From Rhizobium sp. WSM4643 (lineage in GTDB: Bacteria; Pseudomonadota; Alphaproteobacteria; Rhizobiales; Rhizobiaceae): a DNA stretch of 64,000 nt. The notes beneath the pieces are model-generated. The model had not been told where the DNA came from. It searched no databases and saw nothing but the letters and a program-made list of their open reading frames with translations. The DNA lies in contig NZ_CP104040.1 in assembly GCF_025152745.1 (NCBI RefSeq), forward strand, positions 3,224,001-3,288,000. The letters are read 5' to 3'. A program made the translations under genes and the position numbers. Position 1 is the first letter of the stretch, and each line of letters begins with the position of its first letter. Below are positions 39,786-55,364 of the stretch, in pieces.

Positions 39786-40864
39786 CAATAACTGGCGTTG
39801 CGGCCCCTCTCATTACCATCGTCATACCGGCTTACAACGCCGAGAGGACGCTTGCCGAAACGTTGAGAAGCGTCTCCAGCCAGTCCTACGACAAGCTCGA
39901 AATCCTTGTGGTCGACGACGGATCGCGGGACGGCACCTTCGATCTCGCGAGCGACCACAGCCTGATCGATCGCCGTGTCCGTGTTCTCCGCCAGGAGAAT
40001 GGTGGGGTTGCGCGCGCGCGCAACCACGGCGTCCGGGAGGCCAGCGGCCTTTACATAGCCCCCGTCGATGCCGATGATTTATGGCACCCCCGGAAAATCG
40101 AGCTCCAGCTTGAGGCACTAGGGAAGTTTCCGGACGGACGCGGAGTCGCCTACAATTGGTATGCGGCGATTGACGAAAACGGGATCATTTTCGGTCATTC
40201 GCGACCAGTCCTGCATCAAGGGAATATCTTCGAACCTCTGTTAAGGGAAAACTTCATCGGCAATGGCAGCACGCCCTTGATGCCGCGGGCGGACATTCTT
40301 CGCTGCGGCGGCTATGACGCCAGCCTGCGCGACAACGGCGCCGAGGGATGCGAAGATCTGAAACTTTATCTGGCTTTGGCCGAAACCTTGCCCTTTGCGC
40401 TGGTTCCCGATTTCCTGACCGGTTATCGTTTCACCAAGGGAAATATGTCCAGCAACGCTTATCGGATGCTGAAGTCCCACGCCCTGGTGATGGCCCCGAT
40501 CATCACGCGCTATCCGCATTTTACGCGTGACATCAAGACAGCCGAATTCAACACGGCGCGCTGGTATTTCGCCAAGGCGTTTCTCGGCAGCGATTTTGCC
40601 CAGGTCAAAAAGCTGGCGCCGATGATGGTCAGCAAATATTCCTTGCGCCTTATCGCCCACGGCGTGCAGCAGGGCTGGCGCCAGGCGAAACGCGGCCTCC
40701 GGATGGCAAAGCGCGTCCTCGGCAAGTCTTCGGCGCGGCCGAAAACCCGCGTCGCGAACGCGCCGCTTCCGCAACCCGGAACAGCATTCAGCGATCGTTT
40801 CATAGCCGTGCCTGCCAAAGAGGCAACCGGTCTGACCTCTTCCCGGATGGTCAACAATGAATAG
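39782..40864 (+). CDS. Family 2 glycosyltransferase
   Basis: A 360-residue GT-A protein with IVIPAYNAERTLAETL, VVDDGSRDGT and the sugar-nucleotide DxD motif VDADDLWHPR, followed by a helical C-terminal region with basic residues that may touch the membrane. It begins inside the fusion gene (ATGA overlap) and overlaps the ABC exporter by 8 bases, so these form one transcript. Closely similar in style to 42617-43732. Sugar unknown. Confidence 0.87.
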   Translation: MTITGVAAPLITIVIPAYNAERTLAETLRSVSSQSYDKLEILVVDDGSRDGTFDLASDHSLIDRRVRVLRQENGGVARARNHGVREASGLYIAPVDADDLWHPRKIELQLEALGKFPDGRGVAYNWYAAIDENGIIFGHSRPVLHQGNIFEPLLRENFIGNGSTPLMPRADILRCGGYDASLRDNGAEGCEDLKLYLALAETLPFALVPDFLTGYRFTKGNMSSNAYRMLKSHALVMAPIITRYPHFTRDIKTAEFNTARWYFAKAFLGSDFAQVKKLAPMMVSKYSLRLIAHGVQQGWRQAKRGLRMAKRVLGKSSARPKTRVANAPLPQPGTAFSDRFIAVPAKEATGLTSSRMVNNE

Positions 40865-42611
40865 GTTTCGAAAGCCGCCTTCCGCTAAACCCGCAAGAGC
40901 CTACAACCTGGTTATAGCGGCTCGGTTCCGCGAGCTTCTGCAACTCGTACCGGCACTGCGACTCAAGATGACAGTGATGATCATCCTGGGAATTCTTACC
41001 GGCTTCTCGGAAATGGTCGGCATCACCTTTCTGGTCAGCCTCGTCTTTCTTCTCGGGCAGCAAGGTCCCGCTTCCGGCTCCGCCGTTGCATGGCTTCCGG
41101 CGTTTTTCGGCGGCATTGACCTCAGTCTCTCGAAGCCTGTCCTGATCGGCATCCTGATCGGCTCGATCCTGTTTCGGATTTTTCTCGGATGCGCCAATTC
41201 GCTCATTGCAAGCGCTGTCAACCACCGAATTAGCGACCGCATGCGAGACCGTCTCTACGCCAAGGTCTTGACCATGCCGTTTCAGCGCTTTCAGGATTAC
41301 GAGCGTAGCGACCTGATCAACGTTATCGCGACCGAATCCCATGCAGTGTCGTCGGCGCATGCCAGCCTGGTACGACTGGGAGTGAATTTCGGCACGATTG
41401 TGATTTTCGGCGTCGGCATGCTGGTAATGGCCTGGCCGATCGCGTTGCTCGCCCTCGCCTTCGGTTTCATCCATAATTTTGTATTGGGTTTCTTTGCCGG
41501 TGCCTACCGCCGTCTCGGCGCCTCTGCATTGGCGGCAGTGGAAGCATTGACGCAACTGAGCTGGACAACGCTACAGACTTTGAAAGCCGTCAAAAGCTTC
41601 GGCATGGAAAAGCGTCATCAACAACTCTTCGCGGCGCTTTCCAACGACGTCGGCCAGACCTGGCGTCGGTCGGACTGGATGGGAGCGATAACCTCGCTTC
41701 TGAGCGAAATTCTGACCTTCGGGGTCATCCTGACGATCATTCTGTCTTCGGAATTCCTGCCGGTCGATTTCAAGGCGGCGCTCTCGGCGACGATCCTTCT
41801 TTACAGGCTTCAGCCGCATATCAAGGGATTTGATTCCCAGATTCTCAGCCTTTACGAGATGGAAGCGTCCCTGCAAAACGTCCTGGCGCTGCTTTCGGAG
41901 AAAGATGACATCAAGCAGGCTTCGCAAGGGGAAAAGGTAAGCCGCCTGGCGGAGGCGATTGTCTTCCACGACGTCTCGTTCGCCTATGAGCGATCGAACG
42001 CACCGGCGGTTCACAATCTCAGCTTCTCGATCAGGGCAGGTGAGACGACGGCTCTGACGGGGCCGAGTGGCTCCGGCAAAACCACAATCCTCAACATGAT
42101 TCTCGATCTCAACCCGCCGACCCGGGGCCTGATCACGGTCGACGGCAGGGATCTGACAACCATCGACCGTTCCAGCTGGCTGCAGCTGCTCTCCGTGTCG
42201 GGCCAGGACGTTGAACTGATGGAGGGGACGGTCCTCGACAACATCCGGTTCCGTCGCGATATCTCGGAGCAGGATATCCGCTGGGCGGCCGATGTGGCCT
42301 GCGCAACGGAGTTCATCAAAGATCTGCCGTATGGCTTTGATGAATGGCTGGGTGACGAGGCGATCCGGCTTTCGGGCGGGCAAAGGCAGCGCATAGGCCT
42401 GGCGCGCGCGCTCGCCGGCCGGCCTCAGATCCTGCTGTTGGACGAAGCAACAAGCGCGCTCGACGAAGAGACCGAGATGCGGGTGTTTTCGGCGATGAAA
42501 GAAGACGCCGGCAGAACGCTGATTGTCGTCAGCCATCGGCCCGCTGTGGCCAGGCTGATGAAGAACCGGATCGATCTCCGCCCGCCCGCACCCACATCTA
42601 AGCTCGGGTGA
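40857..42611 (+). CDS. ABC exporter, fused membrane and ATPase domains
   Basis: A 584-residue half-transporter: six-helix exporter domain (about 30-325) and ATPase domain with Walker A GPSGSGKTT, signature LSGGQRQR, Walker B ILLLDEATSALD and switch VVSHRP. It lies between two glycosyltransferase genes with overlapping ends, so it most likely exports or flips a lipid-linked saccharide or the substrate of the fused deacetylase/methyltransferase. It is unrelated in position to the exporter at 4908. No peptidase domain is present, so it is not a bacteriocin exporter of the C39 type. Confidence 0.88.
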   Translation: MNRFRKPPSAKPARAYNLVIAARFRELLQLVPALRLKMTVMIILGILTGFSEMVGITFLVSLVFLLGQQGPASGSAVAWLPAFFGGIDLSLSKPVLIGILIGSILFRIFLGCANSLIASAVNHRISDRMRDRLYAKVLTMPFQRFQDYERSDLINVIATESHAVSSAHASLVRLGVNFGTIVIFGVGMLVMAWPIALLALAFGFIHNFVLGFFAGAYRRLGASALAAVEALTQLSWTTLQTLKAVKSFGMEKRHQQLFAALSNDVGQTWRRSDWMGAITSLLSEILTFGVILTIILSSEFLPVDFKAALSATILLYRLQPHIKGFDSQILSLYEMEASLQNVLALLSEKDDIKQASQGEKVSRLAEAIVFHDVSFAYERSNAPAVHNLSFSIRAGETTALTGPSGSGKTTILNMILDLNPPTRGLITVDGRDLTTIDRSSWLQLLSVSGQDVELMEGTVLDNIRFRRDISEQDIRWAADVACATEFIKDLPYGFDEWLGDEAIRLSGGQRQRIGLARALAGRPQILLLDEATSALDEETEMRVFSAMKEDAGRTLIVVSHRPAVARLMKNRIDLRPPAPTSKLG

Positions 42612-42616
42612 CGGAC

Positions 42617-43732
42617 ATGGATGTGTCAACGATGTCAGGTGTTCGGGTGGCGGTCGTGATCCCTGCCTATAATGCCGGAGAATACCTTGCCCAGACGCTC
42701 CAATCCGTTGTCGACCAGACCCACAAGGCGCTTGAGATCATCATCGTCGACGACGGCTCGACGGACGAGACACCCTCGATCTGTCGCCGTTTCGCCGCGA
42801 GTGATTCAAGGATCCGAATTCTGTCGACCGAAAACCGTGGCGTCGCTGCGGCCCGCAATACCGGGATCCAGGCATCGAAATCCGACTTTATCGCCTTCCT
42901 CGATGCAGACGACCTATGGCATTCGACCTATATCCAAAGAATGCTCTCGGCTCTCCAGCCTTTGCCGGACGCCTGGGGCGCGGTCTATGCGCTTCACCGC
43001 TTCATCGATACCGAAGGATATTGCACAAGATCCGGTTCGTCGCTGAACGCCCGAGACAGCATTCTCAACCGTCATCTCGTATTCCGCTTCGTCGGCAATG
43101 GCAGCGGCTTCATGGTTCGCCGCGCTGTTATCGACAAGATCGGCGGCTACGATTCAAGCTATGCCAGAAAGGGGATTGGAGGATGCGAGGATTTCGATTT
43201 CGAACTCCGCACCGCTGAACATTTCAAGATCGAGACGGTGCCGTTGGGCCTGGTGGGCTATCGCTCACATTCCGCAGCCATGTCTTCAGACAGGTCACGG
43301 ATGGCGCGATCGCTTCTGGCGGTGACCGAGCAATGCATCGCCCGCAATCCTGAGCTTCCGGCTTTTGTCGTCAGTTGCGCCCGCGCGTCGGCGCATCTTT
43401 ATGCATTCTCAAAATTTGCCGCCTTGAAAGATTGGTCCAGCGCTGCGACCTCGCTCAAACACATTTATCATCATAGCCCAATGCTCGCCTCCGGCATCCT
43501 CGCCAGGCTGCTCTTTTCAAAAGCTGGCAGAGCCACACGCCGGGCGTTGTCGAAAGTCTGGCCAGCGAGGGAACAAAAGCAAAAGAATCTCAGGAAATTC
43601 GAAGAGATAGACCCGCTTCTCCCCTTGGTCGGTGGTTGGTCTCGCTTCAGAACGAAGGCATTGCTCAGCCGCTTGTCTGAGACGGATCGGTCTGGCGAAT
43701 GCTCTGTGGCGACCTCATCGCAGGAGGCTTGA
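42617..43732 (+). CDS. Family 2 glycosyltransferase
   Basis: A 371-residue GT-A transferase with VVIPAYNAGEYLAQTL, IIVDDGSTDETP and FLDADDLWHSTYI. A GTG at 42608 overlapping the ABC stop is an alternative start; I prefer ATG 42617, with GGG eight bases ahead. It is the last gene of the first polysaccharide segment, followed by a 1.3-kb gap. Similar to the product of 39782-40864, so the pair may add successive related sugars. Confidence 0.86.
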   Translation: MDVSTMSGVRVAVVIPAYNAGEYLAQTLQSVVDQTHKALEIIIVDDGSTDETPSICRRFAASDSRIRILSTENRGVAAARNTGIQASKSDFIAFLDADDLWHSTYIQRMLSALQPLPDAWGAVYALHRFIDTEGYCTRSGSSLNARDSILNRHLVFRFVGNGSGFMVRRAVIDKIGGYDSSYARKGIGGCEDFDFELRTAEHFKIETVPLGLVGYRSHSAAMSSDRSRMARSLLAVTEQCIARNPELPAFVVSCARASAHLYAFSKFAALKDWSSAATSLKHIYHHSPMLASGILARLLFSKAGRATRRALSKVWPAREQKQKNLRKFEEIDPLLPLVGGWSRFRTKALLSRLSETDRSGECSVATSSQEA

Positions 43733-45603: not shown

Positions 45604-45852
45604 CTAGTGGCTTCTGACGCTCACTTGCGGAACCGGGGAGCTCAATTCAGCCAATTCCCTGGTCAAGCCCTCCCCGACCTCCTGCTTCACTGCCTCGAGC
45701 GCAAGGTCGAGGCAATTCGTCGCGAACGGCAGTTTGACATCCTGGGCGACCTGTCGCGCATAGGCGATCATCCGCGCCAATGCGACGAGCTCTTCCACAC
45801 CATCTTCCGCCCTTTGGTCTGCTTCTACATTGCCAACCGATGTCACGCCCAT
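45604..45852 (-). CDS. Small protein at the end of the TfuA-YcaO operon
   Basis: An 82-residue, mainly helical acidic protein (MGVTSVGNVEADQRAEDGVE...) without membrane segment or cysteine-rich motif; one cysteine in ATNCLDLAL. Start at 45852 has GGGGAAATGGGA ahead; the frame is open up to 46014, overlapping tfuA. It is 103 bases after the tfuA stop, likely the last gene of the operon. Unknown function; an immunity or accessory role for the peptide product is only a guess. Confidence 0.5.
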   Translation of the reverse strand: MGVTSVGNVEADQRAEDGVEELVALARMIAYARQVAQDVKLPFATNCLDLALEAVKQEVGEGLTRELAELSSPVPQVSVRSH

Positions 45853-45955
45853 GTCCCATTTCCCCAATGAATTGAAGGAATGATACGCGCCTAGACGTGA
45901 TCCACCCCGTGAAAAAAGCGTGACACAACTCCCGGTGACTATTGCCGGCTGCGAT

Positions 45956-46663
45956 TCACAATGCAGGGCGCGTGCGGAATGAAGTTTGGCGCAGTTTCCA
46001 GGGCAGATCGGCATTCGACCGAATATCGCGAACGTCCTGCACGGCTTTCAACAATTCCAAGGCGTCGATGCGTTTCTGGTCGACGGCATTCGACAAAAGT
46101 GCCGCCATCAGGTGCGGACGATCCTGCTCGGCCAGCCCTGCACATTGCTCGACGACCGCCCGCCAAGTTCGCTTCTTGAAGAAGATAGCGCCTGCGGCAT
46201 CCTCCAGCTGTTGGCGCAACCGACTTTCCAGCAGTCCGCTATCCTCCATCATATCGAGCGTTGCGCTGACATTGACGAGCGGTATCGTGAGCGGCTTGCT
46301 GCCCAGCGCGCTCGGCGCGTGAGTGAGTGCGACCGCGGCATCGTCGACCAGCCGGCCGATGCGATAGTCTTCGAAAATGCGTCCGATCCCGATCATGCCG
46401 AACGGATGGCATTCGGCAGCGCGCAACGCACCCATGCTTGCCGCCCCGAGAACCGCGACGCCCAGCGAAAGAGCATGGAGAATTTCCTTGTGCCAGACCG
46501 GTGCGGTATATTGGAAGCCGCCGTCGATCAGGCCGATGACATTGGCGCCCTGTTCCACCGCCGCCAAGACATCGCCCTGCGTCGCAGGCGGCAGGACGCA
46601 TATCCCCTCGCCGGCAAGCGACGCCGCATCGGGAAGACTGGGACCTGCGAAAATGATCTTCAA
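45956..46663 (-). CDS. TfuA-like protein
   Basis: A 235-residue cytoplasmic protein with the TfuA core: VIGLIDGGFQYTAPVWHKEI, GVAVLGAASMGALRAAE and MIGIGRIFEDYRIG. TfuA was first named from trifolitoxin production in R. leguminosarum, and TfuA proteins partner YcaO enzymes in making thioamides by helping sulfur delivery or amide activation. The start overlaps the YcaO stop (ATGA), so the two are translated together as expected of an enzyme pair. Confidence 0.9.
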   Translation of the reverse strand: MKIIFAGPSLPDAASLAGEGICVLPPATQGDVLAAVEQGANVIGLIDGGFQYTAPVWHKEILHALSLGVAVLGAASMGALRAAECHPFGMIGIGRIFEDYRIGRLVDDAAVALTHAPSALGSKPLTIPLVNVSATLDMMEDSGLLESRLRQQLEDAAGAIFFKKRTWRAVVEQCAGLAEQDRPHLMAALLSNAVDQKRIDALELLKAVQDVRDIRSNADLPWKLRQTSFRTRPAL

Positions 46664-47853
46664 AACCCTATTGCCCTGGCAAGCGCCCTTGTTCCGAACC
46701 GCTGGGCACGCTCCCCCTCCGGATTTTCGAGCTCGGGGATGACAATCTTGACGACACTGAAGGGAAGCGTGTCGTCGCTGAGGCGCACGGCGATCACCGA
46801 AGCGATCCGCCTGCCGCGTAGCTGGTCAAGCACATGCTGCAGCAAGCGGGCCAGATCCTGCTGCCCATGTCTGGCAACCGCATCAAGGCCGATGGCGGCA
46901 GCCGGCGGTGCGGCAACCGCAGCGAAGGCCTGCCGCATCAGCGGCGGCAAGGATCGTGAGAAAGTTGCGGGAGAGATATCGTCGCGGGCTCCGCTGATAT
47001 AGGTCAACCGAGATTGCACGGCTTCCGTCACCGCCCGAATGGCCGCGCGCACGGGAGACGGGTGAGCGCCGGTGCCGCCGGTCACCTCGACGAGGCGAAT
47101 GTCCCTGTTTCCGTGAAGGTCCCGGGAACCAAGCACGGCATCCCCAGGACCCAGCATGGCGGTGAAACAGGGGATTGCGATGTCGCTGGTGATATCGAAG
47201 AGCCTGAGCGCCAATCCCGATGTTTCGATCTTGTCGATCAGCCCGTCCAAAGCGACGTCCTGGAAGCCGCGGGGATCGACGCAGCCGGCATAACGATCCG
47301 CTTCCGCGCCCACCTGCCACAGCACATGGGCGTCACGCTCGATACGCTCCAGAACGCCATGAAAGATCGCCTCCTCGGCATTGTTTCCCGACGCCAGGCC
47401 GTCTGAAGACATCCAGTATCGCGCGTCACGCGTGCGGTCGAGCACCACCGCTTCAAAGGGGACATAGACCTCCTCGCCGGTGAGGATATCGATGCCGGCA
47501 ACCCATTCCGTCTCCTCGTCCGGTCCAAGATCGGGTTTATGAAGAGCGGTCAGGCAGTTCAGCGTGTCGGTCTTGCATCCCATCGCCTGCAGACGGGAAG
47601 AGGTGCCGTGGACGAGATCGACGGCGGGTTCGCCGGCAACCGCCCGTTCGAGGGCTTCCATGATAGTGGATACTTTGGCGTCAATATCGGTCAGGCCCTT
47701 TCCCTGGGCAATCACGATCGAGCGGGAATTCGGGGCATATGCACACCAGACGGGGATTCCGATGTCGTCCAGTCCGGTATGTCGCGCAACCCTGGTAATG
47801 CCGAACCCGGCCAAAAGAGGTTCGACGCGGGAAAGGGTTTCTCGCGGCGACAT
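46660..47853 (-). CDS. YcaO-domain peptide-modifying enzyme
   Basis: A 397-residue YcaO protein. The ATP-binding elements are seen as IMEALERAVAGEP near residue 65-77 and FHGVLERIERDAHVLW near 165-180, matching the E-rich Mg-ATP motifs of the family; the C-terminus ends RALARAIGF without the PxPxP tail typical of azoline-forming cyclodehydratases. Together with TfuA this favours backbone thioamidation over azoline formation. AGGATC precedes the ATG. It starts 42 bases after the 70-residue peptide gene. Other YcaO roles (RimO partner, tRNA or methyl-coenzyme M reductase thioamidation) are less likely in this context. Confidence 0.9.
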   Translation of the reverse strand: MSPRETLSRVEPLLAGFGITRVARHTGLDDIGIPVWCAYAPNSRSIVIAQGKGLTDIDAKVSTIMEALERAVAGEPAVDLVHGTSSRLQAMGCKTDTLNCLTALHKPDLGPDEETEWVAGIDILTGEEVYVPFEAVVLDRTRDARYWMSSDGLASGNNAEEAIFHGVLERIERDAHVLWQVGAEADRYAGCVDPRGFQDVALDGLIDKIETSGLALRLFDITSDIAIPCFTAMLGPGDAVLGSRDLHGNRDIRLVEVTGGTGAHPSPVRAAIRAVTEAVQSRLTYISGARDDISPATFSRSLPPLMRQAFAAVAAPPAAAIGLDAVARHGQQDLARLLQHVLDQLRGRRIASVIAVRLSDDTLPFSVVKIVIPELENPEGERAQRFGTRALARAIGF

Positions 47854-47895
47854 GATCCTGTCGGAATATATGGACCGATCCGTCAGAATGCCGGC

Positions 47896-48108
47896 TCAGC
47901 CGTCGACGTGACCGGAGAGGGCAACCTGCGCCGACGAGACGGCAACGGCAAGGTCGACGCCCTTCACAAATGTGCCGCCGGCTTTGCGCAGGTCGTTCGC
48001 GGTCGCCAAATCCCCCGTCGGATTGAGAGGCTTGACCGCACCTGCGCCGAGATCGGCAAGCCAAAGATCCGCCTCACCGGGTATACCTACAATGACAGCT
48101 TTCGCCAT
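47896..48108 (-). CDS. Candidate RiPP precursor peptide
   Basis: A 70-residue protein directly before ycaO, with AGGGGC seven bases ahead of the ATG. It begins MAKAVIVGIPGEADLWLADL and ends FVKGVDLAVAVSSAQVALSG followed by HVDG. It has no cysteine, few charges in its last 25 residues, and a small-residue-rich C-terminus (Ala, Val, Ser, Gly) that would suit a core for backbone modification; the first about 45 residues would be the leader. Position and size make it the best precursor candidate in the operon. It could instead be a small accessory protein; I know no function for it. Confidence 0.65.
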   Translation of the reverse strand: MAKAVIVGIPGEADLWLADLGAGAVKPLNPTGDLATANDLRKAGGTFVKGVDLAVAVSSAQVALSGHVDG

Positions 48109-48128
48109 GTAATGCCCCTAAGCTATTG

Positions 48129-49976
48129 TTAAAAACCGGCCTTCAATAGGCCCTCCCGATACAGCTCTTTTTGCCAATGCTCTTTGAAGGGAACGATGGC
48201 AAGCCATTTCTCGACGTCGAAGGCCGGGTTGATGCTTGCGACCCGTTGCCGATGGAAAAGCGCCCGTTTTCGATCGCCGATCATTGCGCAACTGGCCGCA
48301 GCAATGCGATGGGCCGGCGCTTTGTCTTTCATCGCCTCGACATAGGCGATGGCCTCCTCGTATTGTTCCAGGAAGAAACTCGCTCCCGCAGCACACCAGA
48401 GATAGGCGTCAGGCGCAATCGGATTGAGCGAAATCGCCTTTTTGATCTTGGCGAGCGCATCGCCCGGGCGCGATGCATGCACCAGCGTGTCGGCATGGCT
48501 GTAGATGACATCGGCAAAATGCGGGCTGAGTTCTTCCGCCAGACGAAGTGCGGCGACACTGGCATCGACATCGCCGAGATAGAGTTTGGTGACGCCAAGC
48601 TCGCGATGACCCGCCGCCGATTCTGGATCCCGCTCGATGGCCCGAAGCGCATTCTGCTCGGCCAGATGCAGCAGCTCGTTGTTTCCCTGCGCCGTCACGA
48701 GCCACTCGCTGGTGAAGGTCCTGGCCAGCCCGGTAAATGACGGAGAAAAATCCAGCTTATGCAACAGGGACTGCTTGAATGCCTTCCTTGCCCGGCGGAT
48801 ATGCGGCAACGTCAACCTGCTCATCAGGCTCGAGCCGACGAGATAGGAATGATAAGCTTTCGGGTTGGCTTCGAAGCGTAGTCGCTCTTCCTCGTTTTCA
48901 GCCAGCTCGCTTGCCACCGATAAGGTCAGTTGCTGCGCGATCAACCGTCTTTGCCGTGGCAATATATCGGGCGTCATCGCAAAGCGATTGGCCCAGATAA
49001 TCTCGTCCGTGGGAAAGTAAACCAGCTGGGCGAATAATCCCTCTTCGGAGAGCCTCGTATCCAGAAGATAGGCGATCGAATGACGCGCGACCACGGCAGC
49101 CTTCTCGGAATCGCGGCGGATCTGGCCGGCCGTATGCGGCGCGACGATGGAAATGTTTCGTAGCGCGCAGAGTTCGATTGTAACGTCTTCGATCAGGGCG
49201 TTGGCAAGCGCAAGTCCGGCATCGGCATGTTTCGATGTCGGAGGAAGCAGCACCAGGCGAGGCAAGATCAGCGGTATCGGCGATATACGTTCGATGTCGG
49301 CAGTTGTCTGACCACCGGCCTCTGACCGCTTCACCTGTACCCGGGCATGGTCGTCGCCGTTCGGCAATCTCTCATTGAGGGACGAACCGCCGGATAGCCG
49401 GTGCAGCAAGGCTCTGACCTGCTCGTCATTCGGATCCCGTTCGAGGATCTGCAGGGCGGCGCTGGAAATGGTGCGCGCCGCGCCGGGCTTTTGCGCGTCC
49501 GGCAGCGCATCCAGCAGTGCCTGCCGCAACTGCAGCGCCTGAGCGTCCCGTTGCGCCCTGATCCACGCTTCTATCAGCTTTGTCGCTGGTTTGATATTTC
49601 CGATGAAGCCGCGCTGGGTCAGTTCGGCGATCGCGTTCAGCCGCTCCAGCGGCGAACCGCCTGTGCGAAAGATATCCAGATCGCTGGAAACTGCCTGCGT
49701 GTCGAGACGAACCGTGGTGGCGGTGAAATCGAAGGGCATTTCCGCGCGACCGCCGTCTGTATCGCGGATGCGGGAAAGCAGTTTGCGCAGATTGAGCCGC
49801 GCCAGGTCAGCTTCGACGTCGTTCCATAGAAACTGAGCCAATTCATAACGGCTGAGTTCATGGTCCGCGCCGGCATAGAGATGGGCCATCATCAACAGGC
49901 CCTTGATCGGATAACGAACCGGGTCGCCATTCGTCTCGATCAACCGCAGATCGCCGAATGTCTGCAGATGGAGCAC
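48129..49976 (-). CDS. SARP/BTAD-type regulator with TPR domain
   Basis: A 615-residue protein: an N-terminal OmpR-like winged helix (LQTFGDLRLIETNGDPVRYP..., about 1-90) and a bacterial transcriptional activation domain (about 95-200), then a long C-terminal half with tetratricopeptide-like helices (about 380-600) and a middle segment similar to the cyclase-associated regulators of rhizobia. The start is GTG at 49976 with GAGGACGG ahead, 9 bases after the Xre gene. SARP proteins commonly switch on secondary-metabolite genes; being first before the peptide gene, it likely controls this operon. Confidence 0.83.
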   Translation of the reverse strand: MLHLQTFGDLRLIETNGDPVRYPIKGLLMMAHLYAGADHELSRYELAQFLWNDVEADLARLNLRKLLSRIRDTDGGRAEMPFDFTATTVRLDTQAVSSDLDIFRTGGSPLERLNAIAELTQRGFIGNIKPATKLIEAWIRAQRDAQALQLRQALLDALPDAQKPGAARTISSAALQILERDPNDEQVRALLHRLSGGSSLNERLPNGDDHARVQVKRSEAGGQTTADIERISPIPLILPRLVLLPPTSKHADAGLALANALIEDVTIELCALRNISIVAPHTAGQIRRDSEKAAVVARHSIAYLLDTRLSEEGLFAQLVYFPTDEIIWANRFAMTPDILPRQRRLIAQQLTLSVASELAENEEERLRFEANPKAYHSYLVGSSLMSRLTLPHIRRARKAFKQSLLHKLDFSPSFTGLARTFTSEWLVTAQGNNELLHLAEQNALRAIERDPESAAGHRELGVTKLYLGDVDASVAALRLAEELSPHFADVIYSHADTLVHASRPGDALAKIKKAISLNPIAPDAYLWCAAGASFFLEQYEEAIAYVEAMKDKAPAHRIAAASCAMIGDRKRALFHRQRVASINPAFDVEKWLAIVPFKEHWQKELYREGLLKAGF

Positions 49977-49985
49977 GATCCGTCC

Positions 49986-50411
49986 TCAGCTGTTCACAAC
50001 CGAATCGTGCAACTCACTGTCGCTTTCAGGCAACCCCGCGGCTGCCAGGCTTTTGGCTAACGCAACCAGCTTTTGCCTGATATTCGGGTCCTCGATGGCG
50101 ATGAATGCCTTGTTGAGCGCCAGCCCCTCCTTCGAGGACAAAAACTTGTTCAATTCGCTCGTCTCGCCCTCGATTGGTCCGGCGCCGCCGTTCTCGAAGA
50201 AAAAGCCGACGGGCACGCGAAGAATCTCGGATATGCGCTGAAGGCGGCTGGCGCCTATTCTATTCGTTCCTTTTTCGTATTTCTGGATCTGCTGGAAGGT
50301 AATGCCGAGAAGTTCGGCCAAGCCGTTCTGGGTCATCCCGAGCGTCTTCCGCCGAACTCTCACGCGGTTGCCAACATAGACGTCGATCGAATTCGGCGAT
50401 TTAGCCTTCAT
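49986..50411 (-). CDS. Xre-family helix-turn-helix regulator
   Basis: A 141-residue repressor-like protein: HTH_3 domain (about 14-68) with RKTLGMTQNGLAELLGITFQQ as its helix-turn-helix and KYEKGTNRI, followed by a helical C-terminal part of about 70 residues. This is the common rhizobial SinR/cro-type regulator. GGGAGA stands eight bases before the ATG. It is the first gene of the operon that ends with tfuA, so it may autoregulate the locus. Confidence 0.87.
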   Translation of the reverse strand: MKAKSPNSIDVYVGNRVRVRRKTLGMTQNGLAELLGITFQQIQKYEKGTNRIGASRLQRISEILRVPVGFFFENGGAGPIEGETSELNKFLSSKEGLALNKAFIAIEDPNIRQKLVALAKSLAAAGLPESDSELHDSVVNS

Positions 50412-50970: not shown

Positions 50971-51861
50971 TTGCCCGATAATTCGTCGTCCGCATATGCG
51001 AAACAGCCGGTGGGAAAACCGCGGATTCCCGTGGTCTTCTGGTTGCTGCTGGCGATTTCCCTCTCACTGGTCATGGGGACGGTGCTGCTTTCCAACGACA
51101 TGAAACACTTAAAGACAGTCAGCCATTATTTTGGCTTCGATCTTTTTCCCCATGAGGTGAGGCCGCCTCCACCCAAACCCCTTCCCCGCCCGATGCCCCC
51201 AGCCAGCTTTAAGCTTCCCTTGCATGCCATCGAACCGCCGATGGTAGAGGCCGCGTCGACTTTTCTACGGACATGGCGGATATCCGGCGCCGCGATGTGT
51301 GCGGCACTGCGCAATGCCGGCATCGAGACCAGCGATTGGGCAGCGGCGAGCTTCAACGCCGATACATTCGAGTGCTTTTTCGAGCAGAGCGGCAAGCGGG
51401 AAAAGGATCAGCTCCCAAAGTCCATCTTCGTCATCGTTCGCGGCAACGCCGCCGGCACGATCAACAATATGCGCGTGAAAATCATCAATCCCGAGACTGA
51501 TCGAAATGGCCAGCTCGATCCCGGCATTCTGCGAATTTTCGAAATCATGCTGCGGCAACCGCAGTGGCTCGATTTTCACGAGACCCTGAACGCGATCAAG
51601 AATCTGAGGGACATCAAGGAAGACGGATTCGGAGCCAGCATCAGCTTCACCCGCGAGGTGCTCAATCCCGGGAATTACAATTTCACACTCTCGCTGGATG
51701 CGACTTCAGGAGCTCAGAAAAGAACGAGAAACTATTTTTCCGGCAGAATATGGCTGCCATTGCCGGACCCCGCGGTCGAGACCGGCAGCCCACAACCGGA
51801 AGCAGTCTCCAGGCCTCCCGATGCCGAGGCCCCGGCAGAAAGTCGGGAACACCCGCATTAG
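50971..51861 (+). CDS. Membrane-anchored protein, unknown (DUF6030-like)
   Basis: A 296-residue protein with one N-terminal membrane helix (about 20-41, VVFWLLLAISLSLVMGTVLL), a proline-rich linker (about 64-80) and a globular domain of about 190 residues outside the cytoplasm (AALRNAGIETSDW..., IFVIVRGNAAGTINN). The start is a TTG at 50971, chosen because GGAGAAG lies seven bases ahead and no ATG fits before the helix. It may belong to DUF6030, known from rhizobia, but I am not sure. Next to polysaccharide genes; a role at the cell surface is only contextual. Confidence 0.7.
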   Translation: MPDNSSSAYAKQPVGKPRIPVVFWLLLAISLSLVMGTVLLSNDMKHLKTVSHYFGFDLFPHEVRPPPPKPLPRPMPPASFKLPLHAIEPPMVEAASTFLRTWRISGAAMCAALRNAGIETSDWAAASFNADTFECFFEQSGKREKDQLPKSIFVIVRGNAAGTINNMRVKIINPETDRNGQLDPGILRIFEIMLRQPQWLDFHETLNAIKNLRDIKEDGFGASISFTREVLNPGNYNFTLSLDATSGAQKRTRNYFSGRIWLPLPDPAVETGSPQPEAVSRPPDAEAPAESREHPH

Positions 51862-51919
51862 AGCCCCTGCGTAGTTTCAGACGCACAAAGGACGCTTTAA
51901 CTCTTTCAATCCTCGCATC

Positions 51920-52003
51920 AGCAAAACTGTGCAACGGTTTCACAGGACTTGCGCGAAAACAAAGAGATAGAGCATCTTCGCGACCTGGAGAAAGGCGAAC
52001 ATG
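51920..52003. repeat. Short palindromic element, partial copy 2
   Basis: GCAAAACTGTGCAACGGTTT, then TTGCGCGAAAACAAAGAGAT and GACCTGGAGAAA follow the order of the unit at 50825-50926 with many substitutions. The terminal inverted repeats are lost. The two copies flank the gene at 50971. Confidence 0.5.
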
Positions 52004-52346
52004 TTGTCGATTTCCGGTTTCGCCCCAAGCACCGGCCTGTCACGCCATGTGACTTACATCGTCACGATGTCTGGCCAGAATCTTGTAGAGCTTTTCAAGC
52101 TGTCCGCACTCGGCCGTTCGGTGCTGTCCCCACCCGCCAGGCGCCAGACACGCTCGGCATTGAGGTCCTGTGTAACTTGCACAAGGTCATCGTTCAGCGA
52201 GCGAATGACGATCTCCGATCGACGCAGCCGCACGACATTCTGACGATCACTGCGAACGGGAGGAAAATGACGCCGACGATGTCGAGAACAAGGGCAGCGA
52301 ACTGCCGGTCATCGAGAAGAGATAGATCGTTTCGGACGGTCGCCAT

Positions 52347-52371
52347 AAAAAAAACGGCATTTTGAAATGCC
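52347..52371 (-). terminator. Orphan Rho-independent terminator on the minus strand
   Basis: Read on the minus strand, GGCATTT pairs with AAATGCC around a two-base CA loop and is followed by G and eight T residues. This is a textbook intrinsic terminator, but no minus-strand protein gene ends here: the nearest gene on the right (52617) is on the plus strand. It suggests a short transcript starting between about 52380 and 52600. Confidence 0.6.
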
Positions 52372-52616
52372 ATATAAAAATAGCTCGTCAGATAGCTAGA
52401 CCAATCTTCCATCACCGGCGCCCTCCCCCAGCGGTCTATATCTTGGAGTATGCTGAAAAGTCTTGCAGACACTGACAATGTCCCCTGCCGGGAAAGTATA
52501 TTTGAGGTTGCATTAGCCTGCTGAATTGAACGCGAATCCCCTGGCGGATCGGTGCCGACGAGCTCGGTCCTTCAAATTCCACCGCGCACATGAAAAAGCT
52601 AACAGAGAGAGATAGA

Positions 52617-53690
52617 ATGAATAGAAGACGTTTCCTCGCCTCGCTTCCGCTCGCGCTGTTATATGTTCGTGCAGGCCAGGCCTTGGCACAGGTGCCTGCC
52701 GCTGCAGGCTTACGCGCCCTTGCCGACAAGAAGTCGTTCCGATTCGGATCGGCAATCGACCTGCAAAACATCAACGATCCAATCGCTTCCGAGATCTACA
52801 TCGACAACGTCAATTCGATAACGCCGCGAAACGAGCTGAAGTGGAATGCGACGGAAAAAAGACCAGGCGTTTTCAGCTTCGGCAGTGCTGACCGCATGGT
52901 TGCATTTGCACGCAAAAACAACATGAAGGTTTATGGCCATACGCTGATCTGGTATCGCGTCCCGGGCTGGGTGTCTGATATCACGGACGCAAAGACCATT
53001 CAGGCGGCGATGAACCGTCATATAAAACAGGTTGTCACTCGCTATAAGAACTCGATCGATGCTTGGGATGTGGTCAACGAACCGTTGGAGTATGATGCAC
53101 CGGATCTGCGGGATTGTGTTTTCCGACGCCTTCTTGGCGACGATTATATTCGTATGAGTTTCGACATGGCGCACCAGGCCAATCCCGACGCAACGCTGGT
53201 ACTCAACGAAACGCATCTGGAGAAAAAATCCGACGTGTTCGAACAGAAGCGCGCGCGCATCTTGAAAATCGTCGAGGATCTCGTGGCAAAAAAAACGCCG
53301 ATCAATGCGGTGGGGCTGCAAGCGCATTTCCGCCCCGGACTCGACCGGATCGATCCGGAAGGAATGGGGCGCTTCTGTGCGGCGTTGAAGGACATGGGTG
53401 TCGGCGTTTTCATCACCGAACTGGATGCGTCCTGCCACTTCCTGAACCGCGACAAAGCCCTCACGCCGGCATCCTACGCCGATATTTTCAGTGACGTGAT
53501 CACCGTGGCGGCCGAACATGGCGACTTGAAAGGCGTGACAGTATGGGGCATGTCGGAAAAATACGGCGAGCGCGATGAGAAAGCGGCCGATCCCGCCGCC
53601 GCTTGCACGAAGCGTGTTAATCTTTACGACGAAAATAATGCGCCAAGAAGTGCGGTTGACGGTGTCCGGCGGGCAATAGAGGCGATGTGA
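52617..53690 (+). CDS. GH10 endo-beta-1,4-xylanase-like glycanase, Tat-exported
   Basis: A 357-residue glycoside hydrolase family 10 protein. It starts MNRRRFLASLPLALL, a Tat-type signal with cleavage near GQALA. Motifs: GHTLIWYRVPGW (substrate His/Trp), the acid/base Glu in WDVVNEPLEY and the nucleophile Glu in VFITELDAS. Both catalytic residues are present. ATG 52617 has AGAGAGAGAT ahead; an ATG at 52590 is less likely. In a polysaccharide cluster such an enzyme often trims or releases the cell's own polymer (as ExoK-type glycanases do), and the UDP-xylose-like synthase at 34581 makes a xylose-containing polymer conceivable. Confidence 0.92.
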   Translation: MNRRRFLASLPLALLYVRAGQALAQVPAAAGLRALADKKSFRFGSAIDLQNINDPIASEIYIDNVNSITPRNELKWNATEKRPGVFSFGSADRMVAFARKNNMKVYGHTLIWYRVPGWVSDITDAKTIQAAMNRHIKQVVTRYKNSIDAWDVVNEPLEYDAPDLRDCVFRRLLGDDYIRMSFDMAHQANPDATLVLNETHLEKKSDVFEQKRARILKIVEDLVAKKTPINAVGLQAHFRPGLDRIDPEGMGRFCAALKDMGVGVFITELDASCHFLNRDKALTPASYADIFSDVITVAAEHGDLKGVTVWGMSEKYGERDEKAADPAAACTKRVNLYDENNAPRSAVDGVRRAIEAM

Positions 53691-53721
53691 TGCATAAGAC
53701 AACGGAGACGCGAACAGATTC

Positions 53722-54873
53722 ATGAAAAAAGCCGTTATTTATGTGGAAAAATTTTTGCCTGCCAGCCAGGCATTTGTTCTCAACCAGGCGGTAGCGTTTC
53801 GTACTTTCGAAGCTGAAATTCTTGCCGGCTCGCGAATTTCTTCGGCGCATACAAAAAAATCCACTGTTCCGGTTCATGACATCCGTCGGTCTCCCATTGC
53901 GCGGGCCGGTGAACTGCTGCTGAAAATCCCGCAGATCGGCCTTCCCTTCCTCTTTCCTGCGATCGGCAAAGCCGATCTCGTTCACGCCCATTTCGGTAAG
54001 AACGGCTATGTCATTGGCCCGCTGGCCCGGGCCGCCGGCAAGCCGCTCGTCACGACGTTTCACGGCTTCGATGCCACCTATCGCGGCGACCCGAAAAAGC
54101 CGGGCGGCTTCAATCAGGTGCGTTTCTTCGCCAAGGGCCGGAGCGAGATGGCCAGCTGGAACAGCTGGAACATCGCCGTTTCCGATTTCATCCGCGACCG
54201 GCTGCTGGCCCTCGGCTTTCCAGCCGAACGCGTCTATCGCCATCATATCGGCATCGATCTCGATCTCTTCAAAATGGAACCCCGCCCCCGAAAAAAAGGG
54301 CTCGTGGTTTCAATTGCCCGCTTCGTCGACTATAAGGGCCATCGTTTCATGATCGACGCGCTTTCGCGTGTGGCCGCCGCCGGCACCCCGGTCGAATTCG
54401 TCATGGTCGGCCAGGGTCCCTTGAAGGAGGAAATCGAAGCACTGGCGCGTCGTTCCTTGCCAAGCGTCACGATCCATGAAAATCTGTCGCAGACTGAGAT
54501 AAGAGATCTGCTCGCCAGTGCGGAGCTCTATCTCCATGGAAGTGTGACCCTCGACAATGGTCACGCCGAAGCTTTCGGCCTCGCAAATCTCGAGGCGGAA
54601 GCCGTTGGTACTCCGGTCGTCGCATTTCGCTCGGGAGGCGTCGGCGAAGCGATCGAAGAGGGGAAAACTGGTTATCTCGTGGAGGAGCGGGATGTCGCGG
54701 GAATGGCGGACGCGGTCGGAAGACTGCTCAACGACCAGACCCTGTGGACAGCCTTTAGCGCGCGGGCACCGCTTCTGGTGGCCGAGCGCTTCGACTTACG
54801 TCGTCAGACGGGGACGCTCGAGGACTATTACAGTTCCGTGCTAGACGAATTTTCCAGCCGGGGTCGGACTTGA
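53722..54873 (+). CDS. Family 4 glycosyltransferase
   Basis: A 383-residue GT-B transferase: N-terminal acceptor half with HAHFGKNGYV and TTFHGFDATYR, C-terminal nucleotide-sugar half with VVSIARFVDYKGHRF and the EX7E-type motif in NGHAEAFGLANLEAEAVGTP. Retaining mechanism expected. It follows the GH10 gene by 31 bases and overlaps the acyltransferase stop-to-start (TGATG). Sugar not identifiable. Confidence 0.9.
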   Translation: MKKAVIYVEKFLPASQAFVLNQAVAFRTFEAEILAGSRISSAHTKKSTVPVHDIRRSPIARAGELLLKIPQIGLPFLFPAIGKADLVHAHFGKNGYVIGPLARAAGKPLVTTFHGFDATYRGDPKKPGGFNQVRFFAKGRSEMASWNSWNIAVSDFIRDRLLALGFPAERVYRHHIGIDLDLFKMEPRPRKKGLVVSIARFVDYKGHRFMIDALSRVAAAGTPVEFVMVGQGPLKEEIEALARRSLPSVTIHENLSQTEIRDLLASAELYLHGSVTLDNGHAEAFGLANLEAEAVGTPVVAFRSGGVGEAIEEGKTGYLVEERDVAGMADAVGRLLNDQTLWTAFSARAPLLVAERFDLRRQTGTLEDYYSSVLDEFSSRGRT

Positions 54874-55364
54874 TGGTGCAGACGGGAAAAAAGCCGAAGT
54901 GGGGACTGAACGTATTTCGGCCGCTACGGAACGGATTTGTGAAGGCGAAGTGGCTCTATTATACGAAATTCTGGGGAATGGACATCGATCCGACGGCGAG
55001 CTTTTCCTTGAGCGTGCGTTTCGACAAGACCAACCCTAGGGGATTGCATATCGGCGCGGAAACTTACGTCGCCTTTGAGGCTGCTATTCTGACCCACGAT
55101 CTCACACGCGGGCTCTACCTTCACACGAGGATCGGCAAACGCTGCTTCATCGGCGCCCGCAGCATCATCCTGCCCGGCATCGAGATCGGCGACGAATCCG
55201 TCATCGGCTCGGGCTCGGTGGTGACCAAGAGCGTGCCGCCGCGCTCGCTCGTCGCTGGCAATCCGGCAAAGATTATCCGCAGCGACATCAAAATAATCTC
55301 CCGCTACGGCCGGATGGATCCAGACAGCGGTTACCGTCCCGATGCGGAATTCCAGAAAAGCTGA
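54873..55364 (+). CDS. Left-handed beta-helix acyltransferase
   Basis: A 163-residue protein of the LbH/hexapeptide-repeat type (WcaF/NodL-like acetyltransferases). Hexad repeats run from about residue 45 to 135: RGLHIGAETYVAFEAAIL, RIGKRCFIGARSIILPGI, IGDESVIGSGSVVTKSV and the typical end PPRSLVAGNPAKII. It probably acetylates a sugar of the polymer using acetyl-CoA. ATG 54873 is used; the previous in-frame TTG is inside the upstream gene. Confidence 0.87.
   Translation: MVQTGKKPKWGLNVFRPLRNGFVKAKWLYYTKFWGMDIDPTASFSLSVRFDKTNPRGLHIGAETYVAFEAAILTHDLTRGLYLHTRIGKRCFIGARSIILPGIEIGDESVIGSGSVVTKSVPPRSLVAGNPAKIIRSDIKIISRYGRMDPDSGYRPDAEFQKS

What the first reader, a model, noticed from the sequence alone, without database searches (positions are those of the whole stretch)
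45604..50411. Self-contained TfuA-YcaO peptide locus with its own regulators
Six minus-strand genes run in order: Xre regulator, SARP/BTAD-TPR regulator, 70-residue peptide, YcaO, TfuA and 82-residue protein. Most gaps are 0-45 bases; tfuA to the last gene is about 100. YcaO without a PxPxP tail plus TfuA is the enzyme pair of thioamide-type RiPPs. The first two genes are regulators and a peptide lies between them and the enzymes. No obvious dedicated transporter or protease is present, which differs from trifolitoxin. I know of no described product with this gene set.
Basis: partly seen in the sequence, partly recalled or inferred. Interest (0 to 1): 0.85.

Follow-up and report, generated by a model that had tools for sequence, protein, structure and literature searches.

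The report
Regulator-linked thioamide peptide pathway in Rhizobium
Almost every Rhizobium genome examined carries a small pathway that appears to make a short sulphur-modified peptide, encoded right next to the same kind of regulator gene, so the peptide may be a chemical signal rather than an antibiotic.

Summary
The six genes are real and as described. The 70-residue ORF is very probably the RiPP precursor of the YcaO-TfuA pair. (1) In 148 genomes of the genus, YcaO and TfuA match the same 142, and the peptide 138, all inside that set. (2) It is kept even where unlinked: all ten modules with a decayed local copy, among the 30 closest modules read, have an unlinked one. (3) In 297 genomes of the order, 18 of 18 credible carriers have TfuA, against 44 of 297 overall. 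(4) Outside Rhizobium, several relatives repeat the C-terminus behind a conserved leader: SGGFMD x2-3 in Shinella, GGFLEAS-type x4, GLFERSE x6, HHYFP x8. Rhizobium has one copy, here SGHVDG. The TPR regulator lies directly upstream of 105 of 107 distinct peptide genes. No exporter or protease was found conserved. Thioamidation is inferred, not shown. "Self-contained" fails genus-wide: the parts can lie on three contigs. Best reading: a new thioamide-type RiPP family with a folded leader and a TPR-regulator partner. A modified peptide signal read by that regulator is the boldest reading not excluded.

The parts
49986..50411 (-). Xre-family helix-turn-helix regulator, 141 aa
   Evidence: ORF; Pfam HTH_3 49.6 bits. 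Present beside ycaO in all ten modules with decayed TPR regulator and peptide; found in 6 of the 10 regions, in one of them on the other strand.
48129..49976 (-). TPR regulator ('SARP' as working name), 615 aa: winged-helix-like N-terminus, alpha/beta middle domain, TPR C-terminus
   Evidence: Pfam TPR models in 25 of 34 aligned regulators, Trans_reg_C in 2 of 34; PDB hits are TPR proteins; predicted model pLDDT 78.7; Foldseek lists TPR proteins and the CadC sensor domain. Directly upstream of the peptide in 105 of 107 distinct cases.
47896..48108 (-). RiPP precursor (70 aa plus stop)
   Evidence: no Pfam family and only a chance-level NCBIfam match (E 0.096).
47935..48108 (-). leader, residues about 1-58: predicted beta-beta-beta-alpha microdomain, then a linker
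   Evidence: Conserved through the order; model pLDDT 86, strands 4-8, 15-19, 24-28, helix 33-42. The leader/core border is my estimate.
47899..47916 (-). predicted core SGHVDG, residues 65-70
   Evidence: The matching C-terminal unit is what is repeated in relatives; residues 59-70 have median dN 0 against 0.049 for 1-58 (66 pairs of 12 loci).
46660..47853 (-). YcaO, 397 aa, thioamide-type
   Evidence: Pfam PF02624 216.8 bits, the only Pfam domain found; best solved relative MJ1094 (6pe3) E 1.5e-29; NCBIfam McrA-glycine thioamidation model 197.9 bits, below its 365 cut-off. The C-terminus reads RALARAIGF: no PxPxP.
45956..46663 (-). TfuA, 235 aa
   Evidence: PF07812 139.3 bits against cut-off 30; solved TfuA 6xp8 E 9.1e-31.
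45604..45852 (-). 82-aa accessory protein of unknown role
   Evidence: No family; recurs downstream of tfuA in many modules and in 6 of the 10 regions (one weakly, E 8e-3).

Best explanation
This is the chromosomal copy of a thioamide-type RiPP pathway that is near-core in Rhizobium. The 70-aa protein is the precursor: a small folded leader (about residues 1-58) and a C-terminal core, SGHVDG here. YcaO activates a backbone amide of the core with ATP, and TfuA releases sulphide from a thiocarboxylated ThiS-like carrier, giving an O-to-S exchange. General peptidases then trim the leader to a short linear thioamidated peptide, as proposed for thiovarsolins. The TPR regulator that precedes the precursor controls it and may sense the product; Xre gives a second layer of control. 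Shown here by sequence: gene set, co-occurrence, leader and repeated cores, regulator-precursor adjacency, dispersal of the genes. Inferred: the thioamide, its site, sulphur delivery, trimming, export, the regulatory links and what the regulator senses.
For: YcaO and TfuA match the same 142 of 148 genus genomes; 138 have the precursor, all within them. All ten modules with decayed local regulator and precursor (of 30 read) have an unlinked regulator-precursor pair. Order: 18 of 18 credible carriers are TfuA-positive against 44 of 297 overall, Fisher p 3e-17, or 8e-14 without the own genus (not corrected for relatedness). Repeated cores: no shuffle of 2000 as repetitive in 11 of 14 tails tested outside the single-core controls. 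Shinella has 2-3 copies of a unit present once in three Ensifer loci. Enzyme identities. A ThiS-family gene exists elsewhere in the genome.
Against: No chemistry was measured. Three of the 14 tested tails are weakly or not repetitive: G206 17 of 2000 shuffles as high, G436 256, G301 1925; G209's 8-residue tail was not tested. Single-core members do not by themselves show a leader/core division. No secretion signal or exporter was found. The leader is conserved like a small protein. ycaO can stand without an adjacent tfuA (L035, L039-L041; S. meliloti Ak57). Six of 148 genus genomes lack all three, and four more have YcaO and TfuA matches but no such peptide.
Confidence: 0.82

Rival explanations
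1. The 70-aa protein is not a substrate but a small conserved partner or regulator of YcaO-TfuA, whose true target is another cellular protein, as in McrA or uL16 thioamidation.
For: Near-core distribution (142 of 148) suits a housekeeping target; the precursor evolves slowly (dN/dS 0.12) and its N-terminus is predicted to fold; YcaO, TfuA and the 82-aa gene stay under purifying selection where the local peptide is lost (median dN/dS 0.23, 0.17, 0.29).
Against: Tandem repetition of only the C-terminal unit is expected of a core, not of a partner. In the ten decayed modules the loss is covered by an unlinked copy. The uL16-type enzymes are reported to have no TfuA nearby (PMC13063428, passages).
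Confidence: 0.1
2. The product is a narrow-spectrum antimicrobial that rhizobia use against each other, like trifolitoxin or phazolicin.
For: RiPPs known from rhizobia include phazolicin, active against relatives of its producer (start of abstract in the listing); cores differ between lineages.
Against: It is present in nearly every species sampled of the genus rather than patchily (138 of 148); no gene beyond the six recurs widely beside the loci compared, so no immunity or export gene stands out; the core hardly varies in the window's clade (median dN 0).
Confidence: 0.15
3. The 82-aa protein is the real precursor and the 70-aa protein an accessory.
For: It stays beside ycaO-tfuA when the local peptide is lost.
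Against: The aligned copies show no repeats, it was found in only 6 of the 10 regions, and its two ends vary while the middle is conserved, unlike a leader/core peptide.
Confidence: 0.04

Closest known systems
Thiovarsolins (Streptomyces varsoviensis; PMC6511847, passages read)
   Same: YcaO + TfuA; a precursor whose relatives range from no repeat to five repeats of a short core; no dedicated protease in the cluster.
   Different: The thiovarsolin cluster also has a heme-oxygenase-like protein, ATP-grasp ligase, amidinotransferase and MFS transporter; none of the genes that recur here is of these kinds. Leader and core were not aligned with VarA. Here a TPR regulator is tied to the precursor.
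TfuA-related clusters of Rhizobium in the survey of Malit et al. 2021 (PMC8120280; passages, sections 12 and 13)
   Same: Over 500 Rhizobium clusters with ycaO and tfuA are counted there; this locus very likely falls among them.
   Different: The parts read name berninamycin-like and Nif11-like Rhizobium precursors, not this one, and suggest glycosyltransferases and ABC transporters as partners. Such genes flank the window module and partly that of one close relative but have no close relatives beside the other modules held with long flanks. Their supplements could not be opened.
McrA-glycine thioamidation YcaO-TfuA of methanogens
   Same: Closest solved YcaO (6pe3) and TfuA (6xp8); Pfam finds only the YcaO domain in the YcaO protein.
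   Different: Scores below the curated cut-offs of both McrA-specific models (197.9 of 365; 178 of 235.2); a small precursor is present.
RRNPP peptide-sensing regulators of Gram-positive bacteria (recalled; search listing only)
   Same: A TPR regulator gene directly followed by a small peptide gene.
   Different: N-terminus is winged-helix-like, not Xre-type; Gram-negative host; the peptide has dedicated modifying enzymes; binding is untested.

Membership tests
Thioamide-type (TfuA-YcaO) RiPPs | YcaO of the thioamide branch next to, or co-occurring with, TfuA | tested here: met
   adjacent in the window; same 142 of 148 genomes. Branch judged from best hits, not from a YcaO tree.
Thioamide-type (TfuA-YcaO) RiPPs | small precursor with conserved leader and separable core, co-occurring with the enzymes | tested here: met
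Thioamide-type (TfuA-YcaO) RiPPs | backbone O-to-S exchange on the core | not testable with these tools
   Needs mass spectrometry.
Azoline-forming YcaO (LAP/TOMM) | PxPxP C-terminus and E1/ThiF-like partner (criterion recalled; partners also named in PMC7136475) | tested here: not met
   C-terminus RALARAIGF; SagD-type model 91.7 bits, below cut-off 219.25; no such partner among the six genes.
McrA thioamidation pair | scores over the McrA-specific models | tested here: not met
uL16-modifying YcaO | stand-alone YcaO without TfuA nearby | tested here: not met
   TfuA adjacent; feature from PMC13063428 passages.
Thiovarsolin family | VarO, VarL, VarS, VarP partners | tested here: not met
   Among 12 loci with ycaO behind the peptide, no ORF outside the six module genes had a relative in more than 2 of the other 11 (one 119-aa ORF at the tfuA position, n=3, is taken as a tfuA fragment).
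RRNPP | TPR regulator gene directly followed by a peptide gene | tested here: met
   105 of 107 distinct cases; the other two have the regulator about 270 bases upstream.
RRNPP | Xre-type HTH fused to TPR; exported propeptide re-imported and bound by TPR (recalled) | tested here: inconclusive
   N-terminus is winged-helix-like instead of Xre-type; export and binding not testable here.
SARP | winged helix plus BTAD | tested here: inconclusive
   Trans_reg_C in 2 of 34 regulators, no BTAD model listed; model has winged-helix-like and helical regions.

The most novel reading that the evidence does not exclude
A Gram-negative counterpart of RRNPP signalling: a short thioamidated peptide, protected from peptidases by its sulphur, is an intra- or intercellular signal read by the cytoplasmic TPR regulator encoded directly upstream of its precursor. 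Regulator and precursor travel as an inseparable pair, while the modifying enzymes can serve pairs elsewhere in the genome, apparently two pairs at once in the window's own genome.
Probability: 0.3. Interest if true: 0.88.

Novelty: new variant of a known kind. Interest (0 to 1): 0.72.

Why it matters
Rhizobium supplies over 500 of the 2,326 TfuA-type clusters counted in 2021, yet at that date the known products of the pair all came from Actinobacteria (PMC8120280, passages). A firm precursor family, with a predicted core and multi-core relatives, makes the product directly searchable by mass. If nearly every Rhizobium makes one short thioamidated peptide beside a dedicated TPR regulator, it is a candidate for a genus-wide signal in bacteria that live with plants. 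It also shows a RiPP pathway whose genes are kept together without being clustered.

Tried and rejected
First idea, rejected: because the peptide and TPR regulator are decayed in ten modules while ycaO, tfuA and the 82-aa gene are intact, I first thought the peptide irrelevant to the enzymes. The genus-wide profile search and the regions fetched from it showed unlinked copies in all ten, which reverses that reading.

A flanking ABC transporter and glycosyltransferases as exporter or tailoring enzymes: not supported. Among the loci held, only distant ABC hits (27-33% identity) in 7 loci and none for the other flank proteins at E <= 1e-15 (families). The window's 30 closest modules were held with only 1.5 kb of flank, so they do not test this; in one close relative a xylanase and a glycosyltransferase do flank the module.

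Structure search for the precursor: no match with E <= 0.001; two recognition-element folds at E 0.64 and 1.7 are a lead only. A motif upstream of 20 regulators without ycaO beside them, GTTGAATnTC, beat three shuffles at each width, but the sequences are related and it may be a -35 element; not used. Class-wide search: of 289 genomes only the own genome matched. The genome searches score a limited number of candidates per genome (19, 20), so weak relatives could be missed. 2 of 72,556 plasmid records match the window's peptide at E <= 1e-5. The second-type 47-aa ORF was sought in 18 chosen genomes, not the whole genus.

Dropped before counting: the G345 match (E 7.9e-4, 32 positions, internal stop, no module genes in its 3.1-kb locus) was treated as chance and left out of the Fisher test. 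Alignment A7 for the model used 34 of the 50 loci plus the window; A8 used 33 of them plus the window. L160 (broken peptide frame) was not used in either. The window's own regulator is not in the tree, because its locus there is cut short. In one search the window's tail and G209's tail were too short to be shuffled; the zeros printed for them mean nothing.

Literature: searches listed no paper that describes this precursor, as far as titles, abstract starts and the passages read show. The library lacks most subscription journals and no supplements could be opened, so it may be listed there unnamed. Liu et al. 2021 on TfuA is not held; its mechanism is used from recall and from passages and a citation in PMC13063428.
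Full report
What is there. Six minus-strand ORFs lie at 45604-50411 with gaps of 9, 20, 42, -4 and 103 bases. Families: Xre HTH; a TPR regulator; a 70-aa protein with no family; YcaO; TfuA; an 82-aa protein with no family. The best solved relatives are MJ1094 YcaO (6pe3, E 1.5e-29) and TfuA 6xp8 (E 9.1e-31). 'SARP' is only a working name: TPR models match 25 of 34 aligned regulators, Trans_reg_C 2 of 34, and no BTAD model was listed. The predicted model (pLDDT 78.7, pTM 0.50) has a winged-helix-like N-terminus, a low-confidence linker at 196-235, an alpha/beta middle and mostly helices from about 372 on; Foldseek lists TPR proteins and the CadC sensor domain.

Distribution. In 148 genomes of the genus the YcaO query matches 142 at E <= 0.001 and TfuA matches the same 142. 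The peptide profile A1 matches 138. The ten without it are the six that lack YcaO and TfuA, plus G025, G074, G090 and G120. So in these 148 genomes the peptide is never found without the enzymes. G025, G074 and G120 match, weakly (49% over 37 residues, E 1e-5, context not read), a different 47-aa ORF that in L048-L050 sits between a related regulator and a second-type YcaO of 37-40% identity; G090 matches neither. The window's own genome holds two peptide copies and one second-type system.

Linkage is not needed. Of the 30 closest modules read, ten (L015-L017, L019-L021, L023, L026, L029, L030) have decayed TPR regulator and peptide beside intact Xre, YcaO, TfuA and 82-aa genes. All ten genomes hold an unlinked regulator-peptide pair. 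In L035, L039, L040 and L041 ycaO has no adjacent tfuA, but TfuA is present elsewhere in these genomes. In G063 and G145 ycaO, tfuA and regulator-peptide lie at three separate places, in G145 on three contigs. In a quick tree of 86 regulators the unlinked and tfuA-divergent copies form one supported group of 48 rows, and loci with ycaO behind the peptide fill the rest, including other families (the program warns of long branches). The clustered arrangement is therefore probably the older one; that is an inference.

The peptide is a precursor with a core. In 297 genomes of the order 19 match profile A3. One (G345) looks like chance and was left out; the other 18 are all among the 44 TfuA-positive genomes (Fisher p 3e-17, or 8e-14 without the own genus; relatedness not corrected). 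Beyond Rhizobium the C-terminus is often repeated behind the same leader: SGGFMD two or three times in five Shinella loci against once in three Ensifer loci; GGFLEAS-type units four times; GLFERSE six times; EAFSGQFD twice; HHYFP eight times; SHYYYP five times. Of 14 tails tested outside the single-core controls, 11 had no shuffle of 2000 as repetitive; G206 had 17, G436 256 and G301 1925. The single-core Ensifer control gave 1585. Rhizobium copies end once in SGHVDG, SGHYDG, SGLFDG and the like. The leader is predicted to fold as three strands and a helix, with no significant structural match. Among 12 loci of the window's clade residues 59-70 have median dN 0 against 0.049 for residues 1-58 (66 pairs).

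Regulator and precursor are inseparable in what was read. Among 107 distinct peptide genes with at least 300 bases upstream, 105 have the TPR regulator directly upstream on the same strand; in the other two it lies about 270 bases upstream. 56 of the 107 have ycaO directly downstream and tfuA in the locus, 4 ycaO only, 9 tfuA only and 38 neither; some loci are short, so tfuA can be missed. In ten 16-kb regions (nine from other families, one from another genus of the family) the order regulator-precursor-ycaO-tfuA holds in all ten, with Xre in six and the 82-aa protein in six, one of these weakly (two precursors recognised). ORFs of 60 aa or more were compared between loci. In 15 unlinked loci no ORF other than regulator and peptide had a relative in more than 3 of the other 14. 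In 12 loci with ycaO nothing outside the six genes had one in more than 2 of the other 11, apart from a 119-aa ORF at the tfuA position. In five tfuA-divergent loci, which are related to each other, some further ORFs recur in up to 3 of the other 4 and were not identified. The window's polysaccharide neighbours have no close relatives beside the modules held with long flanks, but a xylanase and a glycosyltransferase flank the module of R. leguminosarum BIHB 1148 too.

Mechanism. By established knowledge of the families (recalled, and passages of PMC13063428), YcaO activates a backbone amide and TfuA draws sulphide from a thiocarboxylated ThiS-like carrier; a ThiS-family gene exists elsewhere in the genome. 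The nearest worked example is thiovarsolin (PMC6511847, passages), where repeats of a short core yield tripeptides without a dedicated protease. By analogy the product here is a short linear thioamidated peptide from the SGHVDG end. The site of the thioamide is unknown; G66 is invariant in 30 aligned peptides. The near-core distribution, the inseparable TPR regulator and the lack of an evident exporter, protease or immunity gene suit a signal better than an antibiotic, but nothing here shows sensing.

Known or new. Survey work has counted over 500 TfuA-type clusters in Rhizobium (PMC8120280, passages), so the enzyme pair is not new. The precursor family, its repeated cores, its tie to the TPR regulator and the dispersal of the pathway were not seen in the searches made or in the passages read. 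Filed as a new variant of thioamide-type RiPPs.

Noticed in passing
G000:C4, about 385400-388600 (L175), outside the window: A second regulator-ORF47-YcaO-TfuA system with an unrelated 47-aa candidate precursor (72% identical to MKTVETNAAIPAPALRFSAAAKAAVKQDELNVSANGLESLTHALRFR of L048). It suggests that the regulator-precursor-YcaO-TfuA plan is wider than this family.
   Followed up: partly
G000:C1:1879513-1879728 (L071), outside the window: A second, unlinked copy of the peptide behind its own TPR regulator in the window's genome, 51% identical to the window peptide.
   Followed up: yes
L165:10280-11701 (G217): A subtilase (Peptidase_S8) gene on the other side of the regulator of the eight-core precursor; a possible leader or linker protease there.
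   Followed up: no
L176 (Sinorhizobium meliloti Ak57, CP090106.1): Regulator-peptide-YcaO-small protein with no annotated tfuA within about 5 kb; tfuA not sought elsewhere in that strain.
   Followed up: no
L177 (R. leguminosarum BIHB 1148 plasmid pSK03): Six annotated genes in the same order; the TPR regulator is named 'peptide antibiotic resistance protein' there and 'adenylate cyclase' in L176: probably misleading automatic names.
   Followed up: no
window 40857-43732 and 50971-55364: The module sits among ABC transporter, glycosyltransferase, GH10, DUF6030 and hexapeptide-transferase genes; automatic cluster callers may count these as part of the RiPP cluster.
   Followed up: partly
upstream of 20 regulators without ycaO beside them, e.g. 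L120 about -126: Recurrent GTTGAATnTC motif, possibly a promoter or regulator site.
   Followed up: no
L126, L135, L137 (tfuA-divergent loci): Further ORFs recur downstream of the peptide in several tfuA-divergent loci, e.g. L126:8526-10025 and L135:8522-10018; not identified, and the loci are related.
   Followed up: no
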